In this document: piece by piece, positions 7,050 to 29,350 of the stretch
How the letters are laid out: each line of letters opens with the position of its first letter
Position numbering within the stretch: position 1 is the stretch's first letter
DNA from: Thermoplasmata archaeon
Lineage (GTDB): Archaea; Thermoplasmatota; Thermoplasmata; Thermoplasmatales; Thermoplasmataceae
Assembly: GCA_021802055.1 (NCBI GenBank)
Contig: JAKAAY010000015.1
Location: 1 to 38,759 of the forward strand
Length of the DNA stretch: 38,759 nt
Direction: 5' to 3'
Translations under genes and position numbers: made by a program
The notes under the pieces: generated by a model
Databases searched by the model: none
What the model saw: only the letters and a program-made list of their open reading frames with translations
What the model was told of the DNA's origin: nothing

Positions 7050-7631
7050 TCAAGCACTTGAAGATTCACTTATAACCCTGGCAGAAAACTTGTAGACTTC
7101 CACGTTTCCAGAAAAGACTTGCTCGGGATCAATACCGGCCTTGTGAGCAGTCTCGATGATAAATTCCTCTGCATCGAGGCCGTTCTCCGTAGCCACCTGC
7201 GGTAAGAGGAGGCCAGACCTGATTCCATCTGTCATGTACAACCCTTCTTTGCCCAGGGAGAAGTGTCCTTGAGACTTTCCGGGCAGCAGATCGAGTTTTT
7301 CCAGTTTACCAAGCAGCGTAAGTTCAATGCTCAGTTCTGAGACTTCTCCCCCCTTCACAGGAGGAAATCTTGGATCGTCTGTTACGCTCAGAATTGCTGA
7401 CTCCTTCACCGCTTCCCAGAGTGGATATAGGGGCGATACAAAGCCTATGCATCCTCTGAGCATCCCGCCATTTCTCACCGTTGTGAAAACGCCCATTTTT
7501 TCCGAGTACCTTTTCTTTATGGCTTCAGGAACCTCAAAATTCTGTCCCTTTGCTCCGTTTTTAATGGAATTCCTTGCAATAGCCAGAAGTTCAATTTCCA
7601 TAGTATCGTTATCTTGAGATTTGGATGCCAA
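7050..7631 (-). CDS. AMMECR1 family protein (AmmeMemoRadiSam system protein A)
   Basis: A 193-residue cytoplasmic protein of the AMMECR1 family, whose exact biochemical role is unknown. It shows the family hallmark GMLRGCIGF (about residues 57-65), FTTVRNGG before it, then VTDDPRFPPV and LSIELTLLG, and a C-terminal EVYKF strand; length is typical. The start is TTG at 7631, about 24 nt from a TATA-like CAATATATG on the minus strand, consistent with a leaderless transcript; ATG 7601 is an alternative. It is divergent from the MEMO gene with only 39 bp between them. With MEMO and the radical SAM gene it forms a recurrent genomic trio. Confidence 0.92.
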   Translation of the reverse strand: MASKSQDNDTMEIELLAIARNSIKNGAKGQNFEVPEAIKKRYSEKMGVFTTVRNGGMLRGCIGFVSPLYPLWEAVKESAILSVTDDPRFPPVKGGEVSELSIELTLLGKLEKLDLLPGKSQGHFSLGKEGLYMTDGIRSGLLLPQVATENGLDAEEFIIETAHKAGIDPEQVFSGNVEVYKFSARVISESSSA

Positions 7632-7670
7632 TGCTCAACAATTTAAACTGCATATATTGTATTTGCCATC
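7632..7670. promoter_or_regulatory. Compact divergent promoter, AMMECR1 / MEMO
   Basis: Only 39 bp separate the two start codons. TTTAAA (7642-7647) lies about 26 nt before the MEMO ATG, and CATATATTG (7651-7659), read on the other strand, lies about 24 nt before the AMMECR1 TTG. Both mRNAs would be leaderless and the two TATA boxes lie side by side, so the genes are probably co-regulated. This is inferred from spacing. Confidence 0.5.
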
Positions 7671-8495
7671 ATGGGAAGGCAGAATATTCGAAAGCCATGT
7701 GTTTCAGGAACCTTCTACCCGTCCAGTCGGGATGACCTTGTATCTTTCTTACGGAAGCTCGACATGCAGCAGAATATTCAACCTGAACCGCCAGTTACTC
7801 CTGTTGCAGTTCTGGTTCCACACGCCGGGTATATTTACTCGGGCAGGACGGCCATGGTCGCATACCGGCAGTTGAGAAACAGCACGTCGAGAACGTTCGT
7901 TATCGCAGGGCCAGATCATTACGGAACCACGAACATGGTTTCCATTCAGTCCTCCGGAAAATGGGAGACTCCACTGGGGAATGCGAAAATAAATCAGAAC
8001 ACCGCTTTGGAGATTCTCAGGTCCTCAGATAACGTAGTGGAATATGAGCCTGCCCACAGAATGGAGCATTCAATCGAGGTTCAGCTGCCGTTCCTCCAGT
8101 ACCTGTTTGGCGAAGAGTTCACTTTTGTCCCGCTCTCTCTGGGCAGTCAGACCATGGAGTCAATGATGATTCTTTTTAGATCTCTTGCCTCTTTAAATGA
8201 GCCATTCACGCTTATTGCAAGCTCAGACCTGGATCACTATGAAAGCGATTCTGTGGTCAGGGAAAAGGATATGGAACTGATTGGCACGGTAATAAACCTG
8301 GAAATAGAGAGGTTTTATGAAACCGTCCTGACCAGGGATATAAGCGCCTGTGGTTATGGTTCCATAGCACTTTTGATGATGTATGCAAAATCGCTGGGGC
8401 TTAAGATTAAACTGCTGGACCATACCACATCTGCTGAGGCCAGTGGAGACTTTTCCAGGGTTGTGGGATACGCCTCGATGCTTGCTTCCAGATAA
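7671..8495 (+). CDS. MEMO1 family protein (AmmeMemoRadiSam system protein B)
   Basis: A 274-residue protein of the MEMO family, structurally related to non-heme-iron class III dioxygenases. The conserved metal-pocket region is visible: VPHAGYIYSGRTA (about 44-56), AGPDHYGT, HRMEHSIEVQLPFLQYLF (about 124-141) and SSDLDHYES (about 183-191). Length and order match archaeal homologues. ATG 7671 lies about 26 nt after TTTAAA, giving a leaderless mRNA. The radical SAM gene follows on the same strand, so the two are probably cotranscribed. Enzymatic activity is not established for the archaeal family; human MEMO1 has been linked to copper and redox metabolism. Confidence 0.92.
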   Translation: MGRQNIRKPCVSGTFYPSSRDDLVSFLRKLDMQQNIQPEPPVTPVAVLVPHAGYIYSGRTAMVAYRQLRNSTSRTFVIAGPDHYGTTNMVSIQSSGKWETPLGNAKINQNTALEILRSSDNVVEYEPAHRMEHSIEVQLPFLQYLFGEEFTFVPLSLGSQTMESMMILFRSLASLNEPFTLIASSDLDHYESDSVVREKDMELIGTVINLEIERFYETVLTRDISACGYGSIALLMMYAKSLGLKIKLLDHTTSAEASGDFSRVVGYASMLASR

Positions 8496-8563
8496 AAAAA
8501 CCTGTGATCTCGCGACAGGCAAAAGTTATGCGCACGATTGTCCTGCTATACTGTGGGATAAAA

Positions 8564-9565
8564 GTGCAGGCGGCCCTATACACAGCAATGGATAAAGGCA
8601 GGGTAAGGTGCCTCGCATGTCGCAGGTACTGCATTCTGGGTTCTGATCAGAGAGGGTTCTGCGGCGTTAGGGCCAACAGAGCCGGTTCTCTATTACTGGA
8701 GAATTATGGTCAACCCGCAGCGGTCCACCTGGATCCCATTGAAAAGAAGCCTGTGCTTCATGCTCACCCTGGATCAAAGATTTTCTCCATTGGAACAACG
8801 GGTTGCAACTATGCCTGCCAGTACTGCCAGAACTGGCAGATCAGTCAGGATAAGAGCGTCGGTTCAGATTTCATCAGACCGGATGAAATTGTTTCCCATG
8901 CCATAAAATCTGGGGCCCAGGGTATAGCCTATACCTACAATGAACCAACAATCTTCATCGAGTATGCCAGAGACATTGGACTTGAAGCAAGGAGCAGGGG
9001 GCTCTTTAACATTTTTGTGACCAATGGATATGAGACCCCAGAATCCGTGAAGATGTCTGCGGAATTCCTGGATTTTGCCACCGTGGACTTCAAGGGGAAT
9101 GGTGCGACAGAATTTTACAGAAAGTATATATCTGTCCCATCTGCGGAACCCATATACGAAACGATCTCCTTGATGCTTGACCAAGGCATACATGTGGAGA
9201 TTACCGATCTCGTCGTGCCGGAAGTCGGTGATAGGGTCAACGATCTTGACATTATGCTGCGCAAAATCATGGATACAGCCGGCAGTGAAGTGCCTATCAG
9301 CTTCCTGAGATTTCACCCAGATTACAGGATGATGGATCTGCCCGTTACTACTGTCGAAACCCTTGAGAGCCACTGGCAGCACGCTGTTGACATGGGGTTC
9401 AAATATGTCTATATAGGAAACGTGCCAGGCCACAGGTACCAGAACACGTACTGCCCCGCATGTAAAAACATTGTTGTCAGGAGAGACGGGTTTAAAACGA
9501 ACTACGTACGGATTGCCCATGGCAGATGCGAGTTCTGCCATGAGAAGATACCGTATATCATGTAA
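8564..9565 (+). CDS. amrS: AmmeMemoRadiSam system radical SAM enzyme
   Basis: A radical S-adenosylmethionine enzyme of the AmrS/PflA-like group, about 333 residues from GTG 8564. The [4Fe-4S] motif is CNYACQYC. An N-terminal four-cysteine patch (CLACRRYC followed by GFCGVR) and a C-terminal pair of CxxC motifs (YCPAC and RCEFC) look like extra metal sites. The start is uncertain: GTG 8504 and ATG 8528 are in frame, but GTG 8564 gives the N-terminus usual for the family (M-x2-A-x-Y... before G-x-V-R-C). It follows MEMO on the same strand. The substrate is unknown; the constant company of AMMECR1 and MEMO suggests a shared modification pathway. Confidence 0.9.
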   Translation: MQAALYTAMDKGRVRCLACRRYCILGSDQRGFCGVRANRAGSLLLENYGQPAAVHLDPIEKKPVLHAHPGSKIFSIGTTGCNYACQYCQNWQISQDKSVGSDFIRPDEIVSHAIKSGAQGIAYTYNEPTIFIEYARDIGLEARSRGLFNIFVTNGYETPESVKMSAEFLDFATVDFKGNGATEFYRKYISVPSAEPIYETISLMLDQGIHVEITDLVVPEVGDRVNDLDIMLRKIMDTAGSEVPISFLRFHPDYRMMDLPVTTVETLESHWQHAVDMGFKYVYIGNVPGHRYQNTYCPACKNIVVRRDGFKTNYVRIAHGRCEFCHEKIPYIM

Positions 9566-9640: not shown

Positions 9641-9650
9641 TATATTATAT
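9641..9650 (+). promoter_or_regulatory. TATA box of the VWA/PP2C operon
   Basis: TATATTATAT is centred about 26 nt before ATG 9671, the exact spacing for a leaderless archaeal transcript. This decides the start of the VWA gene against the in-frame TTG at 9650, which lies inside the TATA-box region. Confidence 0.6.
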
Positions 9651-9670: not shown

Positions 9671-10495
9671 ATGCCATACTCAGCAGAGATAAGCAGGAAT
9701 AACCCGGGACTGTTCGTTTTTCTCATTGATCAGTCCAGGTCCATGAGCCACAAGATCGGAGGAGGTTCCAGATCAAAGGCTGTAGAAGCCTCTGATGCTA
9801 TCAACAAACAACTCAATGAACTCCTCAACCGTTGCACTAAATCAGAAGGCGTGAGGAATTATTTCGAGATAGGTATAATTGGCTACGGCGTTGCCAGAGA
9901 AACAGCAACATCACTCCTGAAGGATTCACAGATCGTCCCTGTCTCTGAACTGGAGACGAGGATTCTTAAGGTAGAGAAGAGGAAACAGGTCATCGAGGGA
10001 GAAGAAATTGATTTTGACTTCCCCGTATGGTTCGAGCCTGTGGCTGCCAGCGACACCCCGATGGTGAAAGCCTTCACTATGGCCAAGGACTGGACAAGCT
10101 CCTGGATAAACACCCACATGAATTCTTATCCACCGGTGATCATAAACATCAGCGACGGGGAAGCAACCGACGGGGATCCGTCTGCCGTCGTTAACGACAT
10201 CAAGGAAATGGCAACATACGATGGCAACGCACTGGTCTGGAATTGCCATCTTTCCGAGTCAAGAATCACCCCTGTTTCGTACCCAGCATCAGACAGTCAC
10301 CTCCCGGAAGACAAGTATGCCCGAAAGATGTTTGAAATGTCAAGCGAGCTCCCGGAATCCATGATTGCTATCGCCAGGGAAGAGTATAAGGATATCGAGC
10401 GGGGGGCCAGAGGGTATGTCTTCAACGCGCAGTTAGAGGACCTCATAAAGCTGCTTGACATAGGTACCAGGGCAATATCTTCGCTGATGCGATGA
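9671..10495 (+). CDS. VWA domain protein, TerY/YegL-like
   Basis: A 274-residue von Willebrand factor A domain protein with a complete MIDAS metal site: D-x-S-x-S as DQSRS (residues 20-24), Thr in SDTPM (129) and Asp in ISDGEATDGD (162). VWA proteins of this type (TerY, YegL) are cytoplasmic and are found with a PP2C phosphatase and a Hanks-type kinase. Here the PP2C gene overlaps its stop by 4 nt (ATGA) and the kinase gene lies convergently beyond. No signal peptide or membrane helix is seen. It probably acts as a metal-dependent adaptor or kinase target rather than an enzyme. ATG 9671 is set by the TATA spacing. Confidence 0.88.
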   Translation: MPYSAEISRNNPGLFVFLIDQSRSMSHKIGGGSRSKAVEASDAINKQLNELLNRCTKSEGVRNYFEIGIIGYGVARETATSLLKDSQIVPVSELETRILKVEKRKQVIEGEEIDFDFPVWFEPVAASDTPMVKAFTMAKDWTSSWINTHMNSYPPVIINISDGEATDGDPSAVVNDIKEMATYDGNALVWNCHLSESRITPVSYPASDSHLPEDKYARKMFEMSSELPESMIAIAREEYKDIERGARGYVFNAQLEDLIKLLDIGTRAISSLMR

Positions 10496-11211
10496 TTAGT
10501 GTAAGAGAGTTTACAGCGCCAAAGTTTGGCAACAAGCCTGAGGAGAATGAGGATTATCTGCTCTTCGACTCGGGCAAACTCAAATTTGCCGTTGCAGATG
10601 GTGCCAGCGATTCTATTTTTTCAGGCATATGGGCAAAGGCACTGGTCGAGTCCTATCTAAATTCAGATCTATCGTTATTCGATGATGGGGCTTTCATTCA
10701 GCAACTGGTCAGAACAGCCAGAGACAGATGGTACGAAGAGATAAAATGGGACCAGCTGAAACTTTTCGTGAAAAACAAGGCAATAAATGGATCTTTCTCC
10801 ACGTTTACCGCACTCGAGGGAAAGAATGCCGGTGACGTGATCGAGTTCAAAGTGGTTTCTGTTGGCGACAGCTGTTTCCTCAGAAACCAGAATGGATCCC
10901 TGGACTCATTTCCCCTTTCCAGGGCCGAGGATTTCAACATATCTCCCAAACTGATCTGGAGTGGTTACGGCTCTCCATTTTCCAGGGAATTCAAGTGGCG
11001 AAAGCCTGACTTCAAATCCATGAGTTTTACCGCGTCAGCCGCCGATTTTGTGCTTGCAACAGATGCTGTTTCCAAATGGATCATAGAGTATTACCCGGAA
11101 TCATGGGATCACATAGTTGACGGCGATCCAATGGAGCTATTCAGGGATCAGATAGCCAGCAAGAAGATGCGGAATGATGACCTTACATTCCTCCACATAA
11201 GCGTTACGTGA
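10492..11211 (+). CDS. PP2C-family Ser/Thr protein phosphatase (YegK-like)
   Basis: A 239-residue PP2C (PPM) phosphatase expected to reverse the neighbouring kinase's phosphorylation. The two-metal site residues are all present: Asp21 in ENEDYLL, Asp36-Gly37 in VADGASD, Asp191 in LATDAVS and Asp230 in NDDLTFL; GDS at 125-127 is the conserved core turn. It overlaps the VWA gene by 4 nt at the start. Its last 8 nt overlap the last 8 nt of the kinase gene on the other strand (11204-11211). It lacks the classical long flap insertions, as in the short PP2C of the TerY triad. Confidence in the fold is high; the substrate is inferred from context. Confidence 0.88.
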   Translation: MISVREFTAPKFGNKPEENEDYLLFDSGKLKFAVADGASDSIFSGIWAKALVESYLNSDLSLFDDGAFIQQLVRTARDRWYEEIKWDQLKLFVKNKAINGSFSTFTALEGKNAGDVIEFKVVSVGDSCFLRNQNGSLDSFPLSRAEDFNISPKLIWSGYGSPFSREFKWRKPDFKSMSFTASAADFVLATDAVSKWIIEYYPESWDHIVDGDPMELFRDQIASKKMRNDDLTFLHISVT

Positions 11212-12595
11212 TCTGGCTCAGCGAGAACGATTTCCACTGAGAGTCATGCGAACAAAATGCAGCAAGAAGTTCCGCATTGGCCCTGAGTCTTTTGCTGCCC
11301 TTCAGGAGATCGGAAAACACCTTTGACTTCCCCGGGTGGATGAAATCCGATGCCTGGAAGATGAGCCTGTCAGAGTCGCTCTGATTGTAGCCCCAGAATT
11401 TCCTGTCTTCCGCAACTGCCCTCAGGGATAGGTATATCACCAGGGCGGAGAAATTATCCATGGACTGATTGAATTCGTCGCCTCTTCTGGGGTGCTGGAA
11501 GTGCTCGTGGCCCTTCTCTGATGAGGTCTTGCCCTTCAGTGGAGGCACAAACATGCCATCATAATCGATGAACGTTATATCGCCTGTCGGGGAAACTATG
11601 ATGTTGTCGCCCGAGAGATCGCCGTGAGCTATGCCTGAGTCCTGAAGACTCATTACGCCTTCCAGAAATGATTTTGCAGCCTTCTCGATCATGGCCCGGT
11701 CTCCCAGATTCCTCTCTATGAACTGGTTGAGCGTGATGCCTTCCACCCACTCCAGCATAAGCAATGGGAAATACTCCTTGGGCTTGTTCATTACCCTCAC
11801 TGCGGAAGGATGGTAGTTAAAATTCACGAGAAAGGGATGCTTTACCAGGGAAAGATACCAGCTTATGTAGAAGTAGCGTTCCGCGATATCGGGGGAGGCC
11901 CTCGTGAAAAGCTTTAGTGCCCAGTTTTTGCCGTCAATTGAGGCTTTGAATACCGTTCCGAAGTTGCCCGAGCCATAAACGTATGATTTCATCTTTACAT
12001 TGGGATTGGGCTGAAGCTTGGCGTTCAGGAGGTGAGAATACTGAGAGGATATGGAGAACTTGAGATTTTGAAGAGCCTGGGAGTAGTTGGAGGATATTGG
12101 CCATATTCTGGCCTGGGTTTCCAGAATTTCCTTCGGAGGCTTGGGGGGGTTTGGAATACCGGAAATTTTGCCCGGTGATCCGGACTCCTTTGCTGGTTTT
12201 GGGGTCTTTTCCTTCCTTGGTGCTTTTGGTTCCTTTGCTGGTTTTACCGGCTTCTGAGAAGGCTCTGCCTTAACCTTCTCCACCCTGAAGGTAAACGGCT
12301 TGATGACAATGCCTGATGAGTGGTAAACCGCGACCGAGGCTGCATATTCCCCGACGCCATCCAGTCTGGTATCCACGTGATATTTCCCATCAGAACCGAT
12401 GGTAGCGCGAGCAAGCTTTTCGAATCCATCGCTGGAGATCATGGCAATGTCTATACGCCTGAGGCCAGACATTGAAGGAAGCGAAACTGTGAAGGAACTC
12501 AAGCCACCTCTCTGCGGCCCATCGTATGATACTTCGATCTCCTCGGGTCCTATGGAATCCTTCTTTGGCTTTGCATCCTTTGTTCCTCTGGACAA
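11204..12595 (-). CDS. Hanks-type protein kinase with N-terminal Ig-like domain (YegI/TerY-triad type)
   Basis: A 463-residue kinase. Residues about 19-106 look like a beta-sandwich (Ig/E-set-like) domain; 108-157 form a Pro/Lys-rich low-complexity linker; about 200-450 form the kinase domain. Kinase motifs: Gly-loop YGSGNFGTVFKA (207-218), catalytic Lys228 (ALKLF), hinge MLEWVEG, catalytic loop HGDLSGDN (324-331) and metal-binding FIDYDGMFVP (342-351), where DYD replaces DFG. The QHPRR element (367-371) is typical of the YegI/TerY-associated branch. The start is TTG 12595; no ATG lies nearby. It converges on, and overlaps, the PP2C gene by 8 nt. No membrane segment is visible in the protein itself. 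Confidence 0.87.
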   Translation of the reverse strand: MSRGTKDAKPKKDSIGPEEIEVSYDGPQRGGLSSFTVSLPSMSGLRRIDIAMISSDGFEKLARATIGSDGKYHVDTRLDGVGEYAASVAVYHSSGIVIKPFTFRVEKVKAEPSQKPVKPAKEPKAPRKEKTPKPAKESGSPGKISGIPNPPKPPKEILETQARIWPISSNYSQALQNLKFSISSQYSHLLNAKLQPNPNVKMKSYVYGSGNFGTVFKASIDGKNWALKLFTRASPDIAERYFYISWYLSLVKHPFLVNFNYHPSAVRVMNKPKEYFPLLMLEWVEGITLNQFIERNLGDRAMIEKAAKSFLEGVMSLQDSGIAHGDLSGDNIIVSPTGDITFIDYDGMFVPPLKGKTSSEKGHEHFQHPRRGDEFNQSMDNFSALVIYLSLRAVAEDRKFWGYNQSDSDRLIFQASDFIHPGKSKVFSDLLKGSKRLRANAELLAAFCSHDSQWKSFSLSQIT

Positions 12596-12712
12596 TGTAA
12601 GATGAGATGAGGTCTCTGCTAAAGAGCCTTTTGATACTACCGAAGACTAACAGCTTGATCCCTGTATTGATATGCGCAATTTCAGGAATTTACGCGACAG
12701 GATCCATATTTC

Positions 12713-13222
12713 TTATGGGACAATTACGAGGTACGCGAGCACTCCGATCACCATCAGCGCCGAAACAGCAATTGCCGCTAGTGTGATCCTCTTCAGTCTT
12801 CTTTCCCCCAGTATAAAGTGTGGGAACGATTTTTCGTAGGATGACCCAATCTGATAGCCGGCTATCTGCGAGAACCTAATCATGCTGGGAAACAGCGCAC
12901 TCTCAAAGAGTGCAAGATACACAACGATCAGCACGTACGAAACAGGATAGAGCCCTGAAAGAATTGCACCGGCTCCGTCAGACCCAAACCCGGAAGCCAG
13001 CAGTGCAGCAAAAACGGAGAAAAGAATCGAGGTTATGCCGAAAATTCTGAGCAGTGAAAGGCCCCTTCCCAGCAACAGGCTAGAATCTATGGCAGTCTTT
13101 CTCTGCACCGCCATGGAGATAAACGGTATCACGACGTAAAACAACGCGACGAGGATGCCAAGAAAAGTCCCGAGTGCCAATACTACAAGGAAATAGCCGG
13201 CAGTAGCAGGGTCCAACATCAT
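12713..13222 (-). CDS. Four-helix membrane protein of unknown function
   Basis: A 169-residue membrane protein with four predicted helices: about residues 10-35, 55-77, 88-107 and 147-168, with a conserved-looking polar stretch (RFSQIAGYQIGSSYEKSFP) between helices 3 and 4. I recognise no family. It lies upstream of the kinase on the same strand with a 117-bp gap, so it could be cotranscribed with the kinase. ATG 13222 follows a TATA-like TAATATTAA by about 25 nt, so its mRNA is probably leaderless. It could anchor or sense for the kinase module, but that is only a context inference. Confidence 0.7.
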   Translation of the reverse strand: MMLDPATAGYFLVVLALGTFLGILVALFYVVIPFISMAVQRKTAIDSSLLLGRGLSLLRIFGITSILFSVFAALLASGFGSDGAGAILSGLYPVSYVLIVVYLALFESALFPSMIRFSQIAGYQIGSSYEKSFPHFILGERRLKRITLAAIAVSALMVIGVLAYLVIVP

Positions 13223-13390
13223 TATGCATAGGTGAAGAGGACTCAGTTAATATTACTGTTTTTTTTCAAGTGTCCAACCGACGTTGGAGCTGAGACGGGA
13301 TATGGCGCTGCCTTTTTCGCACTTGTTATCCGGGTTTATGGATAGACTCGCAGCAACCCGTTATAACTGGCAAGGTTTATCAAATGCCAT

Positions 13391-14498: not shown

Positions 14499-17255
14499 GT
14501 GAAAGTCCACCTGATCGTCCTATCTGTAGCCCTCATTGTTCTTCCCGTTTCGATCGTTCACCACACCGCTGAGGGGGCAGTTCCACTGTCCGCGAATGTC
14601 CATAACAGAGGGATGTCAGCGCCAGTTACTCTGGACGCCACAATTGGTGACAACCAGACTGAGTCACGCTGTTTTCTCTTCCATAATCTGACTGTTTCAG
14701 AGGGCTCGACCCTTAGCATCAGGAATTCAGTAGTGACTTTCCAGAATCCTGATCCGGCCCTGGTTAACCATGGCAGGGTCATAGTCTGCAATTCCACTCT
14801 ATCCATGCACACACAGGGATTTTCACGTCTCCTGAGTTGCGGCGGTTCAAACAGTTCAATGGCATCTTTCATCATGAAAAACAGCTCCCTCTTCATTGAC
14901 GGTTTTGTGAATATCACCAATACAAAATTCTGCCTGTGGAATTCCACCATCTCAAACGGCACAGGACATGTTTTTCCCCATGAATCCATAGATTTCACAT
15001 CTAGCATCGTATACCTTCACATGTCAAAGATTCAGGGGCTTGCCCAGGATAACCTTACGCATAGTTTTAGTGCGGGCTCCATAAATGACAGTTCTGTACC
15101 GATCTCAAATCCAGGCAGTGTTCACTATACAGCAAATACCACCTATGGAGGAAATCTCATGGTAGAATCCATGAATTTTTCCCTTCTGGTGAGCGGCAAT
15201 AATCCTTACTGCGGAAATTATCTGGATGTGAGGTTGAATGGCGTATCCCTGGCAATGGAACAGCTGCCCAATACTGGATCAATATACTCCAGAAGGGAGT
15301 ATTCCTTCGACGTCAACCTGGAGAAGCTCCAGATGAACCTCACCTCAATACTTTCCGGGTTAACTCTGTATTATAACATGAGCACGGATATCAGGTCAAA
15401 TTCCACAATATGGTCCATCTCGGCAGCAATCATGTCGCAGGACTGGGTGGACAGGTACGGGAATGAATTCAATGAGGTCAGGGCGGTGAACTCTACCGTA
15501 GTGTCATATTGTTCGAACCTCGGGATAAACGATTATGCCAAGAGCCTGAATTGTTCCGTTCCCGATCCTCAGGCTGACATGTTAGTACTCCGGAAAGGGA
15601 GCGCTGCCTATCTTGCTGGAAATTTCTACGATCATCATGGAAATTCAAATTGCCTGCCTGTACTTGCGTCCAGCAGTTCCCTGGCAGTAACTCTGTCTGT
15701 GATCAACATAACTGCTTGCTCCGGTCAAACGCCATTGAACGGTTTCAATATCTCGTCCACATCAGAGGCGCTCAATGAATCACAACGGGCCCTGGGAGAG
15801 CGATGCCTGGAAGCTGGAGAAAGGACCTTTGCTCAGTATAGTGGGTCTCTTGACATCGTTCGTAATGGCAGGGGTAAGATGCTGCTACCCAATTCGCTGA
15901 TCTCTCCCCAGGAGCAACCGGTTTACCTGGGGGCCTTCAACATAACTGTTGCCGGCAAGACGCTCTTCTTTTCGCCAACTCCGTTTCCTGCAGCACACTC
16001 ACTTCAGGGCAACCTCAATTTTTCCTTCTCTCTGGCGATACCAGCGGTGTCCAGCCTCGATAAATACATGCTTGCACACGCAGCTGGCAACCTGTCCTTC
16101 ATGATTTTCCGGAATTATGATCGCCAGTACTCCCTGCAGGCTTTTCTGTCCATACCGCTGGCGGGTGTTTCCAAGGCATGCAGCACGCAGCTCCTGACAA
16201 GCTCCCAAAACATCACCTTTCCCTTAAAAGTCCCGGGTTATATAGATGCGGCAAGCGTGCACGTATATCTGAACCTGTCACTCTCCACAGAAACACCGCA
16301 AGGGAGCACGTTGCACTTCACTTTCCGTCTTCCGGTGAGAAATTCGGTATCCATCAGGCTGAACTCCTCGTTCGACCCATTGTCAGGACTGCTGAATGAT
16401 ACCATCTGTGACCTTAGCTCCCCCAGCAGCATTCCAATGACACTGGTCATAGAAAATGAGACCACGGGTAGTGTACTGGAAAGAACGAACATCAGCGGCA
16501 CAGCAGGATGCGGTAGCAGGATTATTTCCCTATACCTTGGACCCTCCACGAATGCTACAGTTGGGAGCCTGCTCATAGTTCCGCCTGATTACATGGATGC
16601 ATATCCGACCGCGGTCAGCGTTATGGCAAAAAATGCCACTACGTACAAGGTTTCGTTCAACGAAATTGGGCTTCCCGCCTGTACGCCCTGGGCAGTAAAC
16701 CAATCCGGTTCAATTCTTGTTTCAGGCAGTCCGTGGATCAACGTCACGCTTCCCAATGGGAGCTACAGGTTTACAATACCGGAAATCCATGGCTATGACT
16801 CTAAGGCCTTTTCCTGCTCCTTCCGCGTCAGAGGGAGTTCTCTTGTGATCCCGATCAGCTTCATGGTGCACCGCTATATTGTGACGATCATGGAAATGGG
16901 AATCCCTGCCTTTACTTCCTGGTCTGCGTGGATAGGTAATTCGCTTCATACTGCAAATTCCACCATGATGGTCATTTCCCTTCCTGAAGGCGTATATGTC
17001 TTCTCTCCCGAAATCTCGGGAAACTACTTCCCGTCGAATTCATCCTGGGTCATTACCGTATCCGGAAACACAACGGTGAATGTCACTTACAGGTTTTTAC
17101 ATCAACAGTTCCTGGGAGGTTTCTTCGATTTTGTAACTTACAACTACCCTGGGGTCTCAGCGCTCCTGCTGACGCTCATACTCCTTGTGGAATACTGGAG
17201 GCTCAGATCCGGATTCTTCTTTACGGGAGACAGAGGCTCAAAAAAAGAAAAATAG
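14499..17255 (+). CDS. Large cell-surface protein with C-terminal anchor
   Basis: A 918-residue secreted, membrane-anchored protein. Residues 1-27 form a signal peptide (hydrophobic LIVLSVALIVLPVSIV, then A-E-G-A). The long ectodomain is Ser/Thr/Asn-rich with many N-x-S/T sequons, suggesting heavy N-glycosylation. Two copies of the Thermoplasmata surface repeat (F-x-E-x-GLP-x-C-T-x-W... N-G-S-Y-x-F) occupy about 716-790 and 788-866. A single helix (VSALLLTLILLVEYW, about 890-905) and a short basic tail end the protein. GTG 14499 is the start consistent with the signal peptide. Flanking glycosyltransferase and sugar-phosphatase genes fit a glycosylated surface-layer or adhesin role. Confidence 0.78.
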   Translation: MKVHLIVLSVALIVLPVSIVHHTAEGAVPLSANVHNRGMSAPVTLDATIGDNQTESRCFLFHNLTVSEGSTLSIRNSVVTFQNPDPALVNHGRVIVCNSTLSMHTQGFSRLLSCGGSNSSMASFIMKNSSLFIDGFVNITNTKFCLWNSTISNGTGHVFPHESIDFTSSIVYLHMSKIQGLAQDNLTHSFSAGSINDSSVPISNPGSVHYTANTTYGGNLMVESMNFSLLVSGNNPYCGNYLDVRLNGVSLAMEQLPNTGSIYSRREYSFDVNLEKLQMNLTSILSGLTLYYNMSTDIRSNSTIWSISAAIMSQDWVDRYGNEFNEVRAVNSTVVSYCSNLGINDYAKSLNCSVPDPQADMLVLRKGSAAYLAGNFYDHHGNSNCLPVLASSSSLAVTLSVINITACSGQTPLNGFNISSTSEALNESQRALGERCLEAGERTFAQYSGSLDIVRNGRGKMLLPNSLISPQEQPVYLGAFNITVAGKTLFFSPTPFPAAHSLQGNLNFSFSLAIPAVSSLDKYMLAHAAGNLSFMIFRNYDRQYSLQAFLSIPLAGVSKACSTQLLTSSQNITFPLKVPGYIDAASVHVYLNLSLSTETPQGSTLHFTFRLPVRNSVSIRLNSSFDPLSGLLNDTICDLSSPSSIPMTLVIENETTGSVLERTNISGTAGCGSRIISLYLGPSTNATVGSLLIVPPDYMDAYPTAVSVMAKNATTYKVSFNEIGLPACTPWAVNQSGSILVSGSPWINVTLPNGSYRFTIPEIHGYDSKAFSCSFRVRGSSLVIPISFMVHRYIVTIMEMGIPAFTSWSAWIGNSLHTANSTMMVISLPEGVYVFSPEISGNYFPSNSSWVITVSGNTTVNVTYRFLHQQFLGGFFDFVTYNYPGVSALLLTLILLVEYWRLRSGFFFTGDRGSKKEK

Positions 17256-27445: not shown

Positions 27446-29350
27446 ATGTCTAAAACACGTTCAGACTGGAAAAGACCGGTTCTGGCAGGAATTGCTATAG
27501 CCGTTGTTTTCCTGATGATTGCATCGTACGGGATCTCCGATTTCGGGATCTCACAGGTATCGGTATCCGGAGGTAAATACAAGCCCGATGCCTTGCCGGC
27601 AGGATCGTATTACGTCAATTTTACGGAGACTGGACTTCAGGTCGGAACAACGTGGCAACTCTCGTATGGCACATCCATCTCATTCCTTTCCAATACTGTG
27701 TATAGCACAAACTCGGTGATCAGTTTTACCGAAACAAACGGCACCATTTATTTTGCCGCTTTGGAAGCAGATAACCCCCAGTACTCTTATGTGCCTAACA
27801 TATCTTCTGGGTCAATTGTAATCGATGGCAATAACGTGTTTGTGAATGTTTTCTTCACGAACACAACCACAACACCCGCTCCTTCGTACCACGAGAACTT
27901 CAACATCACCAACCTCCCCAGCTTCTTCAACGGTGTAGTGTGGGAATGGGATGTATCGGTGGTTGGGGTAAGTTCAAGTTATAACCAAAAAGTTCAGTCT
28001 ACAGGCACCTCAATGAGCTTCAGCGGGCTGGAGACGGGCACCTATGACTACTCTGTTTCCTCCGCCTTTGGTACGTCGCTTTCCCCCGGCTCCGGCGCCC
28101 TTTCAGTCAGTGCAAACGGTACCGTCAACCTCAAGTTCTCGTTCGATAAGCTTTACCCGGTGACGTTCAAGGAAAATGGCCTGCCAGGCAAACAGACCTT
28201 CTCAGTCGGCGCACGCTCTATTCAGTTTGGGCAATGCTACCAGAACACGAGTTTCCCGGGAGATAACTATTTAACCTTTAAGCTACCCAACGGGTCTTAC
28301 TCCTTCTGTGCAGGAACTTCAGGAAACTATAGACCAAACCCCACCTATGGGTCATTTATTGTCAACGGGTCGTCCCTCACGGTAGCTGTTAAATACTCGC
28401 TTGCACCCACTACCTATGACGCCAGCTTCACTATCGTCAATCCTCCTGCTGTTCTTAACGAATCTTCACTGTCTTATGGCATTGAACTTGAGACTCCGAC
28501 CGGAGGCTTTATACACAACTATTTTAGTGACTCGCTTCCCACTGTCACAGTCACAGGTCTAAGCAATGGAACCTATCTGTACCACTCCTCCTCCTGTATC
28601 CAGAATTATTATCTGTCACCATCTCTGGGAGAGTTTACTGTGAGCGGAGCGAACGTCAGTGTTGCCCTTACGATACACACTAATCCAAAGACCTATTCTG
28701 CTAATTTCACCATTACAGATATTCAGAAAGGTGTCCCTGATTGGGGCATCATGTTGATGAACAGTACCAAAGAACTGGAGCATTCTTTTGTCTGTAATCC
28801 TGAGACTTCATTCTCTAGGCTGAGCCCGGGAATCTATACCTATTCCCTGGCAGCCTACGACGGATATTTATTTGAAAACCAGACCGGTACAATAAATATC
28901 ACAGACGCAAATGTGAATGTGAACCTGCAGGTAACATTGCAGAAGTCTTACCCCATCTATTTCTCTGAGAGCGGATTGCCTTCTGGAGTTCAATGGGGTG
29001 TTGTTCCGACGTTTGGCGTTCCATTCAGTTCAAAGGTTGTTTCTACTTGCTGCCTTGATCTATCAAGTGTCAGCTCACCGCTGGAATTCCCGCTTTATTT
29101 GGCTAACGGTACCTATCAGTTTCAGACCTTTGTATATTCCCTGGGAGCCTACACGTTCTCTGCACCATTTACGTTGACAGTGAACGGGCACAGTCAGAAT
29201 GCAACCAGCAATTTTGCTCCCCCAACAACGGGCAACAATAACGGAGCCCTGGCACTGGATGCTGGCATAGCAGCCGCAGTAATTGTAGCAGCGGGACTTG
29301 GAATAACCTACATGTACCGTAAGAAAATATTCCCTCCAAAGAAAGAGTGA
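27446..29350 (+). CDS. Cell-surface protein with six tandem repeats
   Basis: A 634-residue membrane-anchored exported protein. A hydrophobic N-terminal segment (VLAGIAIAVVFLMIASYGI, about residues 11-29) acts as signal or anchor. The ectodomain has about six copies of a roughly 90-residue beta repeat opening with Y-x-(V/A)-x-F and often GLP/GL-x-G-x-x-W (for example VNFTETGLQVGTTW, VTFKENGLPGKQTF, IYFSESGLPSGVQW) and closing with N-G-T-Y. N-x-S/T sequons are frequent. Near the C-terminus GIAAAVIVAAGLGITYMY (about 606-623) is a membrane helix followed by a Lys-rich tail. It likely forms part of the cell envelope. A hairpin terminator straddles the stop. Confidence 0.8.
   Translation: MSKTRSDWKRPVLAGIAIAVVFLMIASYGISDFGISQVSVSGGKYKPDALPAGSYYVNFTETGLQVGTTWQLSYGTSISFLSNTVYSTNSVISFTETNGTIYFAALEADNPQYSYVPNISSGSIVIDGNNVFVNVFFTNTTTTPAPSYHENFNITNLPSFFNGVVWEWDVSVVGVSSSYNQKVQSTGTSMSFSGLETGTYDYSVSSAFGTSLSPGSGALSVSANGTVNLKFSFDKLYPVTFKENGLPGKQTFSVGARSIQFGQCYQNTSFPGDNYLTFKLPNGSYSFCAGTSGNYRPNPTYGSFIVNGSSLTVAVKYSLAPTTYDASFTIVNPPAVLNESSLSYGIELETPTGGFIHNYFSDSLPTVTVTGLSNGTYLYHSSSCIQNYYLSPSLGEFTVSGANVSVALTIHTNPKTYSANFTITDIQKGVPDWGIMLMNSTKELEHSFVCNPETSFSRLSPGIYTYSLAAYDGYLFENQTGTINITDANVNVNLQVTLQKSYPIYFSESGLPSGVQWGVVPTFGVPFSSKVVSTCCLDLSSVSSPLEFPLYLANGTYQFQTFVYSLGAYTFSAPFTLTVNGHSQNATSNFAPPTTGNNNGALALDAGIAAAVIVAAGLGITYMYRKKIFPPKKE

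What the first reader, a model, noticed from the sequence alone, without database searches (positions are those of the whole stretch)
9671..13222. Archaeal VWA / PP2C / Hanks-kinase module with a convergent kinase and membrane partner
Sequence shows complete MIDAS, PP2C and kinase motifs in three adjacent genes. In bacteria the same trio (YegL/YegK/YegI, or the TerY triad tied to tellurium-type stress systems) forms a phosphorylation switch. Here the kinase faces the other two and shares 8 nt with the phosphatase, no other Ter genes are present, and a four-helix protein lies behind the kinase. This could be a stand-alone archaeal stress-signalling unit.
Basis: partly seen in the sequence, partly recalled or inferred. 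Interest (0 to 1): 0.75.

Follow-up and report, generated by a model that had tools for sequence, protein, structure and literature searches.

The report
Archaeal membrane-linked TerY-type phosphorylation switch
Acid-loving archaea of the Thermoplasma group carry a compact set of a kinase, a phosphatase and a metal-binding VWA protein, built like a bacterial anti-phage triad but with the kinase turned round and given membrane-directed input parts, so it looks like a distinct archaeal signalling switch whose trigger is still unknown.

Summary
Four intact genes lie at 9671-13222: a TerY-type VWA protein, a PP2C phosphatase, a convergent Hanks kinase sharing 8 nt with the phosphatase, and a four-helix membrane protein behind the kinase. 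PADLOC profiles place the first three in the TerY-P anti-phage triad (E 5e-82, 4e-24, 5e-58). E. coli YegL/K/I are only remote relatives. The kinase lacks the C-terminal OB or zinc-ribbon domain of TerY-P and has an N-terminal beta-sandwich instead. In 56 of 56 Thermoplasmatota species the kinase is convergent; in 30 of 30 bacterial loci it is co-directional. The archaeal VWA proteins form one clade (100/100). Kinase input domains come in three types, one per branch: beta-sandwich, PH fold, or fused transmembrane helices. The membrane gene occurs in 7 of 77 family genomes, always directly behind this kinase. The three genes share one history that conflicts strongly with rpoB plus EF-2, so the block moved between genera, yet presence clusters by genus, unlike a restriction-system control. 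No TerD in 77 genomes. Most likely this is a membrane-coupled TerY-type kinase/phosphatase switch. Whether it answers viruses or stress is open. New variant of a known kind.

The parts
9671..10495 (+). TerY-type VWA protein (274 aa), complete MIDAS (DxSxS...T...D)
   Evidence: PADLOC TerY PDLC02224 E 5.3e-82 over the full profile; 45% identity over 275 aa to Simplicispira TerY; MIDAS residues 57/57
10492..11211 (+). PP2C-type protein phosphatase (239 aa), metal-binding residues complete
   Evidence: PADLOC PP2C PDLC02222 E 3.5e-24, full length; Pfam PP2C_2 E 6e-4, below cut-off; residues conserved
11204..12595 (-). Hanks-type Ser/Thr kinase (463 aa), convergent with the phosphatase; no C-terminal OB or zinc-ribbon domain
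   Evidence: Pfam Pkinase E 1.1e-10; PADLOC STK_OB E 4.8e-58, kinase part only (42-283 of 562); AlphaFold2 pLDDT 82.8
11246..11998 (-). kinase domain, about residues 200-450 (GSGNFG, ALK, HGDLSGDN, IDYDGM)
12281..12535 (-). N-terminal seven-strand beta-sandwich of the kinase (residues 21-105), followed by a disordered Lys/Pro linker (111-143)
   Evidence: AlphaFold2, block pLDDT 77-91; no Pfam match; 'Ig-like' is inferred from strand count only
11204..11211 (.). 8-nt overlap of the 3' ends of phosphatase and kinase genes
   Evidence: 43 of 56 archaeal loci overlap by 7-23 nt here
12713..13222 (-). four-helix membrane protein (169 aa), same strand as and upstream of the kinase
   Evidence: strong homologues in 7 of 77 family genomes, all directly behind the triad kinase
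9641..9649 (+). TATA-like box TATATTATA centred 26 nt before the VWA ATG (leaderless-type promoter, inferred)
   Evidence: read from the sequence
13247..13255 (-). TATA-like box TAATATTAA centred about 29 nt before the membrane-protein ATG (inferred)
   Evidence: read from the sequence

Best explanation
The locus is a TerY-type phosphorylation switch of an archaeal lineage, built as two converging transcription units: VWA-phosphatase from the left, membrane protein-kinase from the right. The kinase phosphorylates the VWA protein or an effector bound to it, the PP2C removes the phosphate, and the MIDAS metal site of the VWA protein is the docking or sensing surface that changes with phosphorylation. 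Input is taken at the membrane: here the N-terminal beta-sandwich of the kinase is proposed to bind the four-helix partner; in sister branches a PH-fold domain or fused transmembrane helices do the job. Shown: gene set, orientation, intact active sites, strict linkage of the membrane gene, input-domain swapping, common history of the three genes. Inferred: who phosphorylates whom, membrane input, separate control of kinase and phosphatase by opposing promoters. Not known: the trigger (virus, envelope or acid stress) and the final output.
For: PADLOC matches to all three TerY-P components and pairwise matches to the Simplicispira triad, whose kinase is a full-length STK_OB match. Order VWA-PP2C-kinase kept in 56 archaeal and 30 bacterial loci; kinase convergent in every archaeal one of this clade, co-directional in every bacterial one. 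Catalytic residues invariant. Searching 72,556 plasmids separately with VWA and with kinase finds the same two records. VWA, PP2C and kinase trees have no strong conflict with one another. The membrane gene is found only behind this kinase. Input domains: seven-strand sandwich in the window, PH fold in L100 (Foldseek to GRK2 and TFIIH p62 PH domains, E about 1e-4), fused transmembrane helices in genera g8, g15, g18 and Sysuiplasma. Related bacterial triads are active modules: TerY-P protects P. aeruginosa from Autographiviridae (PMC10889362) and is described as acting against T7-like phages (PMC7699616).
Against: No biochemical data for any archaeal member. The beta-sandwich/membrane-protein contact is not modelled. 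The membrane gene is missing in other sandwich-bearing genera (g4, g6), so it is not needed there or is replaced. It is not homologous to the fused transmembrane domains. A PH fold need not mean membrane binding (TFIIH p62 and FACT subunits also have it).
Confidence: 0.6

Rival explanations
1. It is an antiviral defence system, the archaeal counterpart of TerY-P: infection is sensed by the kinase and phosphorylation of VWA or host targets blocks the virus.
For: Sequence closeness to the proven OB-type TerY-P triads; the block has been transferred between genera (AU tests), as defence cassettes are; patchy at larger scale (absent from g2, g5, g13).
Against: No OB or zinc-ribbon domain. Flanks are mostly housekeeping genes: among 115 neighbours only isolated defence-like matches (a type II methyltransferase, a UvrD-type helicase). 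Presence clusters by genus (149/193 concordant pairs, 3 of 2000 shuffles as high), unlike HsdR (120/193, no clustering). No VWA relatives in phage or viral collections.
Confidence: 0.35
2. It is a housekeeping stress or envelope-signalling switch: the kinase senses membrane state in thermoacidophiles and controls a metal-dependent VWA effector; it has lost any defence role.
For: Single copy, stable within genera, mostly housekeeping flanks, membrane-type input modules replacing the nucleic-acid-type domain of bacterial relatives.
Against: Wholly absent from complete genomes of genera g5 and g2 of the same family; transferred between genera; no stress data.
Confidence: 0.45
3. It belongs to the E. 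coli YegL/YegK/YegI type, or is part of a tellurium (Ter) system.
For: Same three protein kinds in E. coli; remote kinase similarity to YegI (hhalign probability 83) and a 54-aa VWA match.
Against: YegL, YegK, YegI do not match the PADLOC models that the window proteins match; PP2C shows no match. TerD is absent from all 77 family genomes; the VWA query finds only two cyanobacterial plasmids.
Confidence: 0.05
4. The shared order reflects neutral conservation and the four proteins do not act together.
For: No direct interaction data.
Against: Order kept across archaea and several bacterial phyla while flanks change; common gene history against the species markers; the membrane gene never occurs apart from the kinase.
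Confidence: 0.05

Closest known systems
TerY-P anti-phage triad with STK_OB kinase (Gao et al. 2020 type; PADLOC TerY/PP2C/STK_OB; here Simplicispira metamorpha L134)
   Same: VWA, PP2C and kinase are homologous, in the same gene order; VWA 45% identical, kinase domain 35%; same kinase signature (HGDL...DN, IDYDGM, E..GH..FQHP)
   Different: Kinase gene inverted; no C-terminal OB domain; N-terminal sandwich, PH or transmembrane input domain; extra membrane gene in one branch; stable chromosomal setting
TerY-P triad of CoCoNuT and Ter gene neighbourhoods (kinase with zinc ribbon; Anantharaman et al. 2012, as described in PMC11090510)
   Same: Same three protein kinds; proposed metal-sensing phosphorylation switch
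   Different: No zinc ribbon, no Ter genes, no McrBC-type or helicase partners conserved
E. coli YegL/PphC(YegK)/YegI
   Same: VWA, PP2C and kinase near one another
   Different: Only remote sequence relation; kinase separated from the phosphatase by yegJ; no match to the TerY-P models
Co-directional VWA/PP2C/kinase triads of Rhodospirillaceae, cyanobacterial plasmids, Thermotogae and others (L085, L086, L145, L152 and others)
   Same: Homologous trio in the same order
   Different: All genes on one strand; kinases short (about 320 aa) or with other added domains
KKP kinase-kinase-phosphatase module of Pf prophages (PMC11341870)
   Same: Ser/Thr kinase and phosphatase module with anti-phage activity
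   Different: Two kinases and no VWA protein in the name and abstract; prophage-borne

Membership tests
TerY-P triad (Gao 2020 / PADLOC) | TerY-like VWA protein | tested here: met
   PDLC02224 E 5.3e-82, full length
TerY-P triad (Gao 2020 / PADLOC) | PP2C phosphatase of the triad type | tested here: met
   PDLC02222 E 3.5e-24, positions 8-239 of 242
TerY-P triad (Gao 2020 / PADLOC) | kinase domain of the STK_OB type | tested here: met
   PDLC02223 E 4.8e-58 over positions 42-283
TerY-P triad (Gao 2020 / PADLOC) | C-terminal OB-fold or zinc-ribbon domain on the kinase | tested here: not met
   Kinase ends just after the catalytic domain; profile positions 284-562 unmatched in the window kinase; also unmatched in L055, L078, L105
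TerY-P triad (Gao 2020 / PADLOC) | three genes co-directional (30/30 bacterial loci here) | tested here: not met
   Kinase convergent in 56/56 archaeal loci
TerY-P triad (Gao 2020 / PADLOC) | anti-phage activity | not testable with these tools
   No experiment possible; known for bacterial members (PMC10889362, PMC7699616)
Ter-associated TerY triad | neighbourhood of or co-occurrence with Ter genes | tested here: not met
   TerD PF02342 0 of 77 genomes; no Ter genes in the best-matching families of the flanks
E. coli YegL/YegK/YegI | clear homology of all three proteins | tested here: not met
   Only a 54-aa VWA match, no PP2C match, remote kinase match
Hanks-type protein kinase superfamily | Lys, HxD, Asn and Asp catalytic residues and fold | tested here: met
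   Residues conserved; fold matches PKC, Myt1, PKR

The most novel reading that the evidence does not exclude
A membrane-sensing phosphorylation switch that archaea derived from, or share with, the TerY-P defence triads by inverting the kinase gene and exchanging its nucleic-acid-type domain for membrane-type input domains (sandwich plus four-helix partner, PH fold, or fused helices); it spreads between Thermoplasmata genera as an intact block and controls the kinase/phosphatase balance through opposing, overlapping transcription units.
Probability: 0.35. Interest if true: 0.75.

Novelty: new variant of a known kind. Interest (0 to 1): 0.55.

Why it matters
I found no description of how TerY-P triads sense and respond, even in bacteria. 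This archaeal lineage offers natural variants in which the three core enzymes stay fixed while the input part of the kinase is exchanged, which points to the kinase end domain as the sensor. It also occurs in cultured genera (Thermoplasma, Cuniculiplasma, Thermogymnomonas), so it can be tested. If it is a defence system it would add an innate system to archaea; if not, it would show a defence-type switch used in ordinary membrane signalling.

Tried and rejected
Homology of the four-helix protein to the transmembrane domains fused to other kinases of the family: rejected, hhalign probability under 1%. A defence-island setting: not found. Carriage by viruses or phages: none found. Purely vertical inheritance: rejected; the triad data reject species-marker groups g18+g19 (p-AU 2e-8) and g8+g11 (4e-55), and the species data reject the membrane-gene carriers as one clade (4e-41). 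A first rpoB tree was wrong because minus-strand loci were read on the wrong strand; redone. Convergence as a trait of all archaea: rejected; a distant Thermoplasmatota genome (G448) has a divergent co-directional triad (L235). That the triad phosphatase is the only PP2C of these genomes: rejected; genome G101 (a Thermoplasma) has a second at 708 kb and the window genome has one on C15. Solved structures of the VWA protein: none found by profile.
Full report
What is in the sequence. The VWA gene starts at the ATG at 9671, as judged from 17 relatives that begin at or near the same residue. It overlaps the PP2C gene by 4 nt. The kinase gene comes from the other strand and ends inside the last 8 nt of the PP2C gene (11204-11211). 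Behind the kinase, on the same strand, lies a 169-aa protein with four to five hydrophobic segments. TATA-like boxes stand about 26 nt before the VWA start and about 29 nt before the membrane-protein start, which would fit two leaderless converging transcripts; this is read from sequence and not tested.

What the proteins are. Pfam recognises the kinase clearly (E 1.1e-10) and the VWA and PP2C proteins weakly. The PADLOC library of defence proteins gives the strongest matches: TerY over the full length (5.3e-82), triad PP2C over the full length (3.5e-24), and the TerY-P kinase STK_OB (4.8e-58), but only over its kinase part. Against a canonical OB-type triad from Simplicispira (kinase E 1.7e-251 to STK_OB), the VWA is 45% identical over 275 aa, the kinase 35% over 243 aa and the PP2C 24% over 240 aa (E 3e-12). 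The E. coli YegL, PphC (YegK) and YegI proteins do not match these models and show at most remote similarity to the window proteins. So the lead to TerY was right and the lead to YegI was not close. All catalytic and metal-binding residues are conserved across the archaeal set.

Distribution. In the order, 53 of 117 genomes carry the VWA protein, one locus each, all in one family; a sample of 390 genomes of the phylum adds a Sysuiplasma-like genome with the same arrangement and one distant genome with a divergent triad. Named relatives include Thermoplasma, Cuniculiplasma, Thermogymnomonas acidicola, E-plasma, the ASS_A1 genome and Ca. Sysuiplasma. The collection scan behind these names uses two peptide patterns, so it finds close relatives only. 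Outside archaea the nearest relatives are scattered Proteobacteria, cyanobacterial plasmids, Planctomycetota, Thermotogota and Armatimonadota. A separate search of the plasmids with the kinase returned the same two records as the VWA.

Orientation. Of 57 archaeal loci of this clade, 56 are complete and all 56 have VWA and PP2C together and the kinase convergent; the remaining one stops at a contig end. In 43 the 3' ends overlap by 7-23 nt. Of 33 bacterial loci, 30 are complete and in all 30 the kinase is co-directional. The archaeal VWA proteins are one side of a branch with full support (100/100). A distant Thermoplasmatota genome has a divergent co-directional triad (L235), so the convergent form belongs to this clade and is not a rule for archaea.

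Input domains. None of the archaeal kinases examined matches the C-terminal OB part. Instead they carry one of three N-terminal modules: a beta-sandwich (the window and genera g3, g4, g6, g7, g19), a PH-like domain (g9-g12, g16, g17), or transmembrane helices (g8, g15, g18, Sysuiplasma). The window kinase was modelled at mean pLDDT 82.8, with seven strands at residues 21-105 and a disordered linker; the full-length Foldseek search is dominated by kinases, so 'Ig-like' is only a description of the strand pattern. The PH-like domain was modelled at 84.5 and matches PH domains of GRK2 and TFIIH p62. On the VWA tree the sandwich and the PH groups are clades of high support, as is the transmembrane group.

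The membrane partner. In 77 family genomes the four-helix protein has strong matches in 7, and every one lies directly behind this kinase; the eighth candidate, G085, has its contig end inside the kinase. The carriers (g1, g3, g7, g19) are a group on the triad tree (84/82 concatenated; 98/88 for VWA), but the species markers reject them as one clade (p-AU 4e-41). So the membrane gene has probably travelled with the triad. It is not detectably related to the helices fused to other kinases. The beta-sandwich genera g4 and g6 have no such gene.

History. Trees of VWA, PP2C and kinase domain show no strong conflict with each other, but 7, 3 and 4 of their strong splits conflict with an rpoB plus EF-2 tree. 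AU tests agree. The block therefore moved between genera as a unit. Two markers are a limited stand-in for a species tree. Within genera, presence is stable: 149 of 193 same-genus pairs agree, which 3 of 2000 shuffles reach; the restriction subunit HsdR shows 120 of 193 and no clustering. Incomplete genomes add noise to both counts. Flanking genes differ between genera and are mostly housekeeping, with few defence-like matches among 115 neighbours. TerD is absent throughout.

How it probably works. From the families involved (general knowledge of Hanks kinases, PP2C and MIDAS proteins) the simplest reading is a reversible phosphorylation switch centred on the VWA protein. The fixed core and exchanged kinase end suggest that the end domain is the input. 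All three archaeal input types can plausibly act at a membrane, which is an inference: a PH fold can also bind proteins. The inverted kinase gene separates the kinase from the phosphatase promoter, and overlapping ends leave no room for a terminator between them, so mutual antisense control is possible but untested.

Defence or stress. Bacterial TerY-P protects P. aeruginosa against Autographiviridae (PMC10889362) and is described as acting against T7-like phages (PMC7699616); the OB domain there suggests binding of an oligonucleotide, and the zinc ribbon may do the same (PMC11090510). The archaeal form lacks these domains and sits in a stable, mostly ordinary chromosomal setting, which tilts slightly to signalling, while block transfer between genera and sequence closeness tilt to defence. 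I leave this open, 0.45 to 0.35.

Novelty. I found no paper in the held library describing this archaeal form; subscription papers, including Anantharaman 2012 and Gao 2020 themselves, were not read here. It is best filed as a new variant of the TerY-type triad, not as TerY-P proper, since the C-terminal kinase domain was tested and not met.

Noticed in passing
window 7053-9565: AMMECR1, Memo and radical SAM genes lie side by side just before the triad, the known AmmeMemoRadiSam set; in the family they flank the triad only in the same genus.
   Followed up: partly
window 14499-17255 and 27446-29350: Two large secreted-type proteins (918 and 634 aa) with a C-terminal hydrophobic anchor share repeats of the type 'F.E.GLP....W', suggesting a repeated surface domain.
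   Followed up: no
G000 contig C15, about 71879-73495: A second, separate Hanks kinase (E 7e-39) and PP2C pair in the same genome.
   Followed up: no
L037-L041, L043, L044 (Cuniculiplasma-type genus g4), directly behind the kinase: A divergently transcribed UvrD-like helicase gene lies next to the kinase in most loci of this genus; could be a genus-specific partner.
   Followed up: no
L235 and L234 (genome G448): Divergent archaeal triad with co-directional order in L235 and a second, possibly decayed set in L234.
   Followed up: partly
L065 / L090 (Thermogymnomonas acidicola) and L077 / L132 (UBA582): Kinase, and in L077 also VWA, frames are broken into pieces; sequencing error or gene decay.
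   Followed up: no
L059, L060 (genus g10): The kinase appears to carry two tandem PH-like domains at its N-terminus, as judged from repeated sequence.
   Followed up: no
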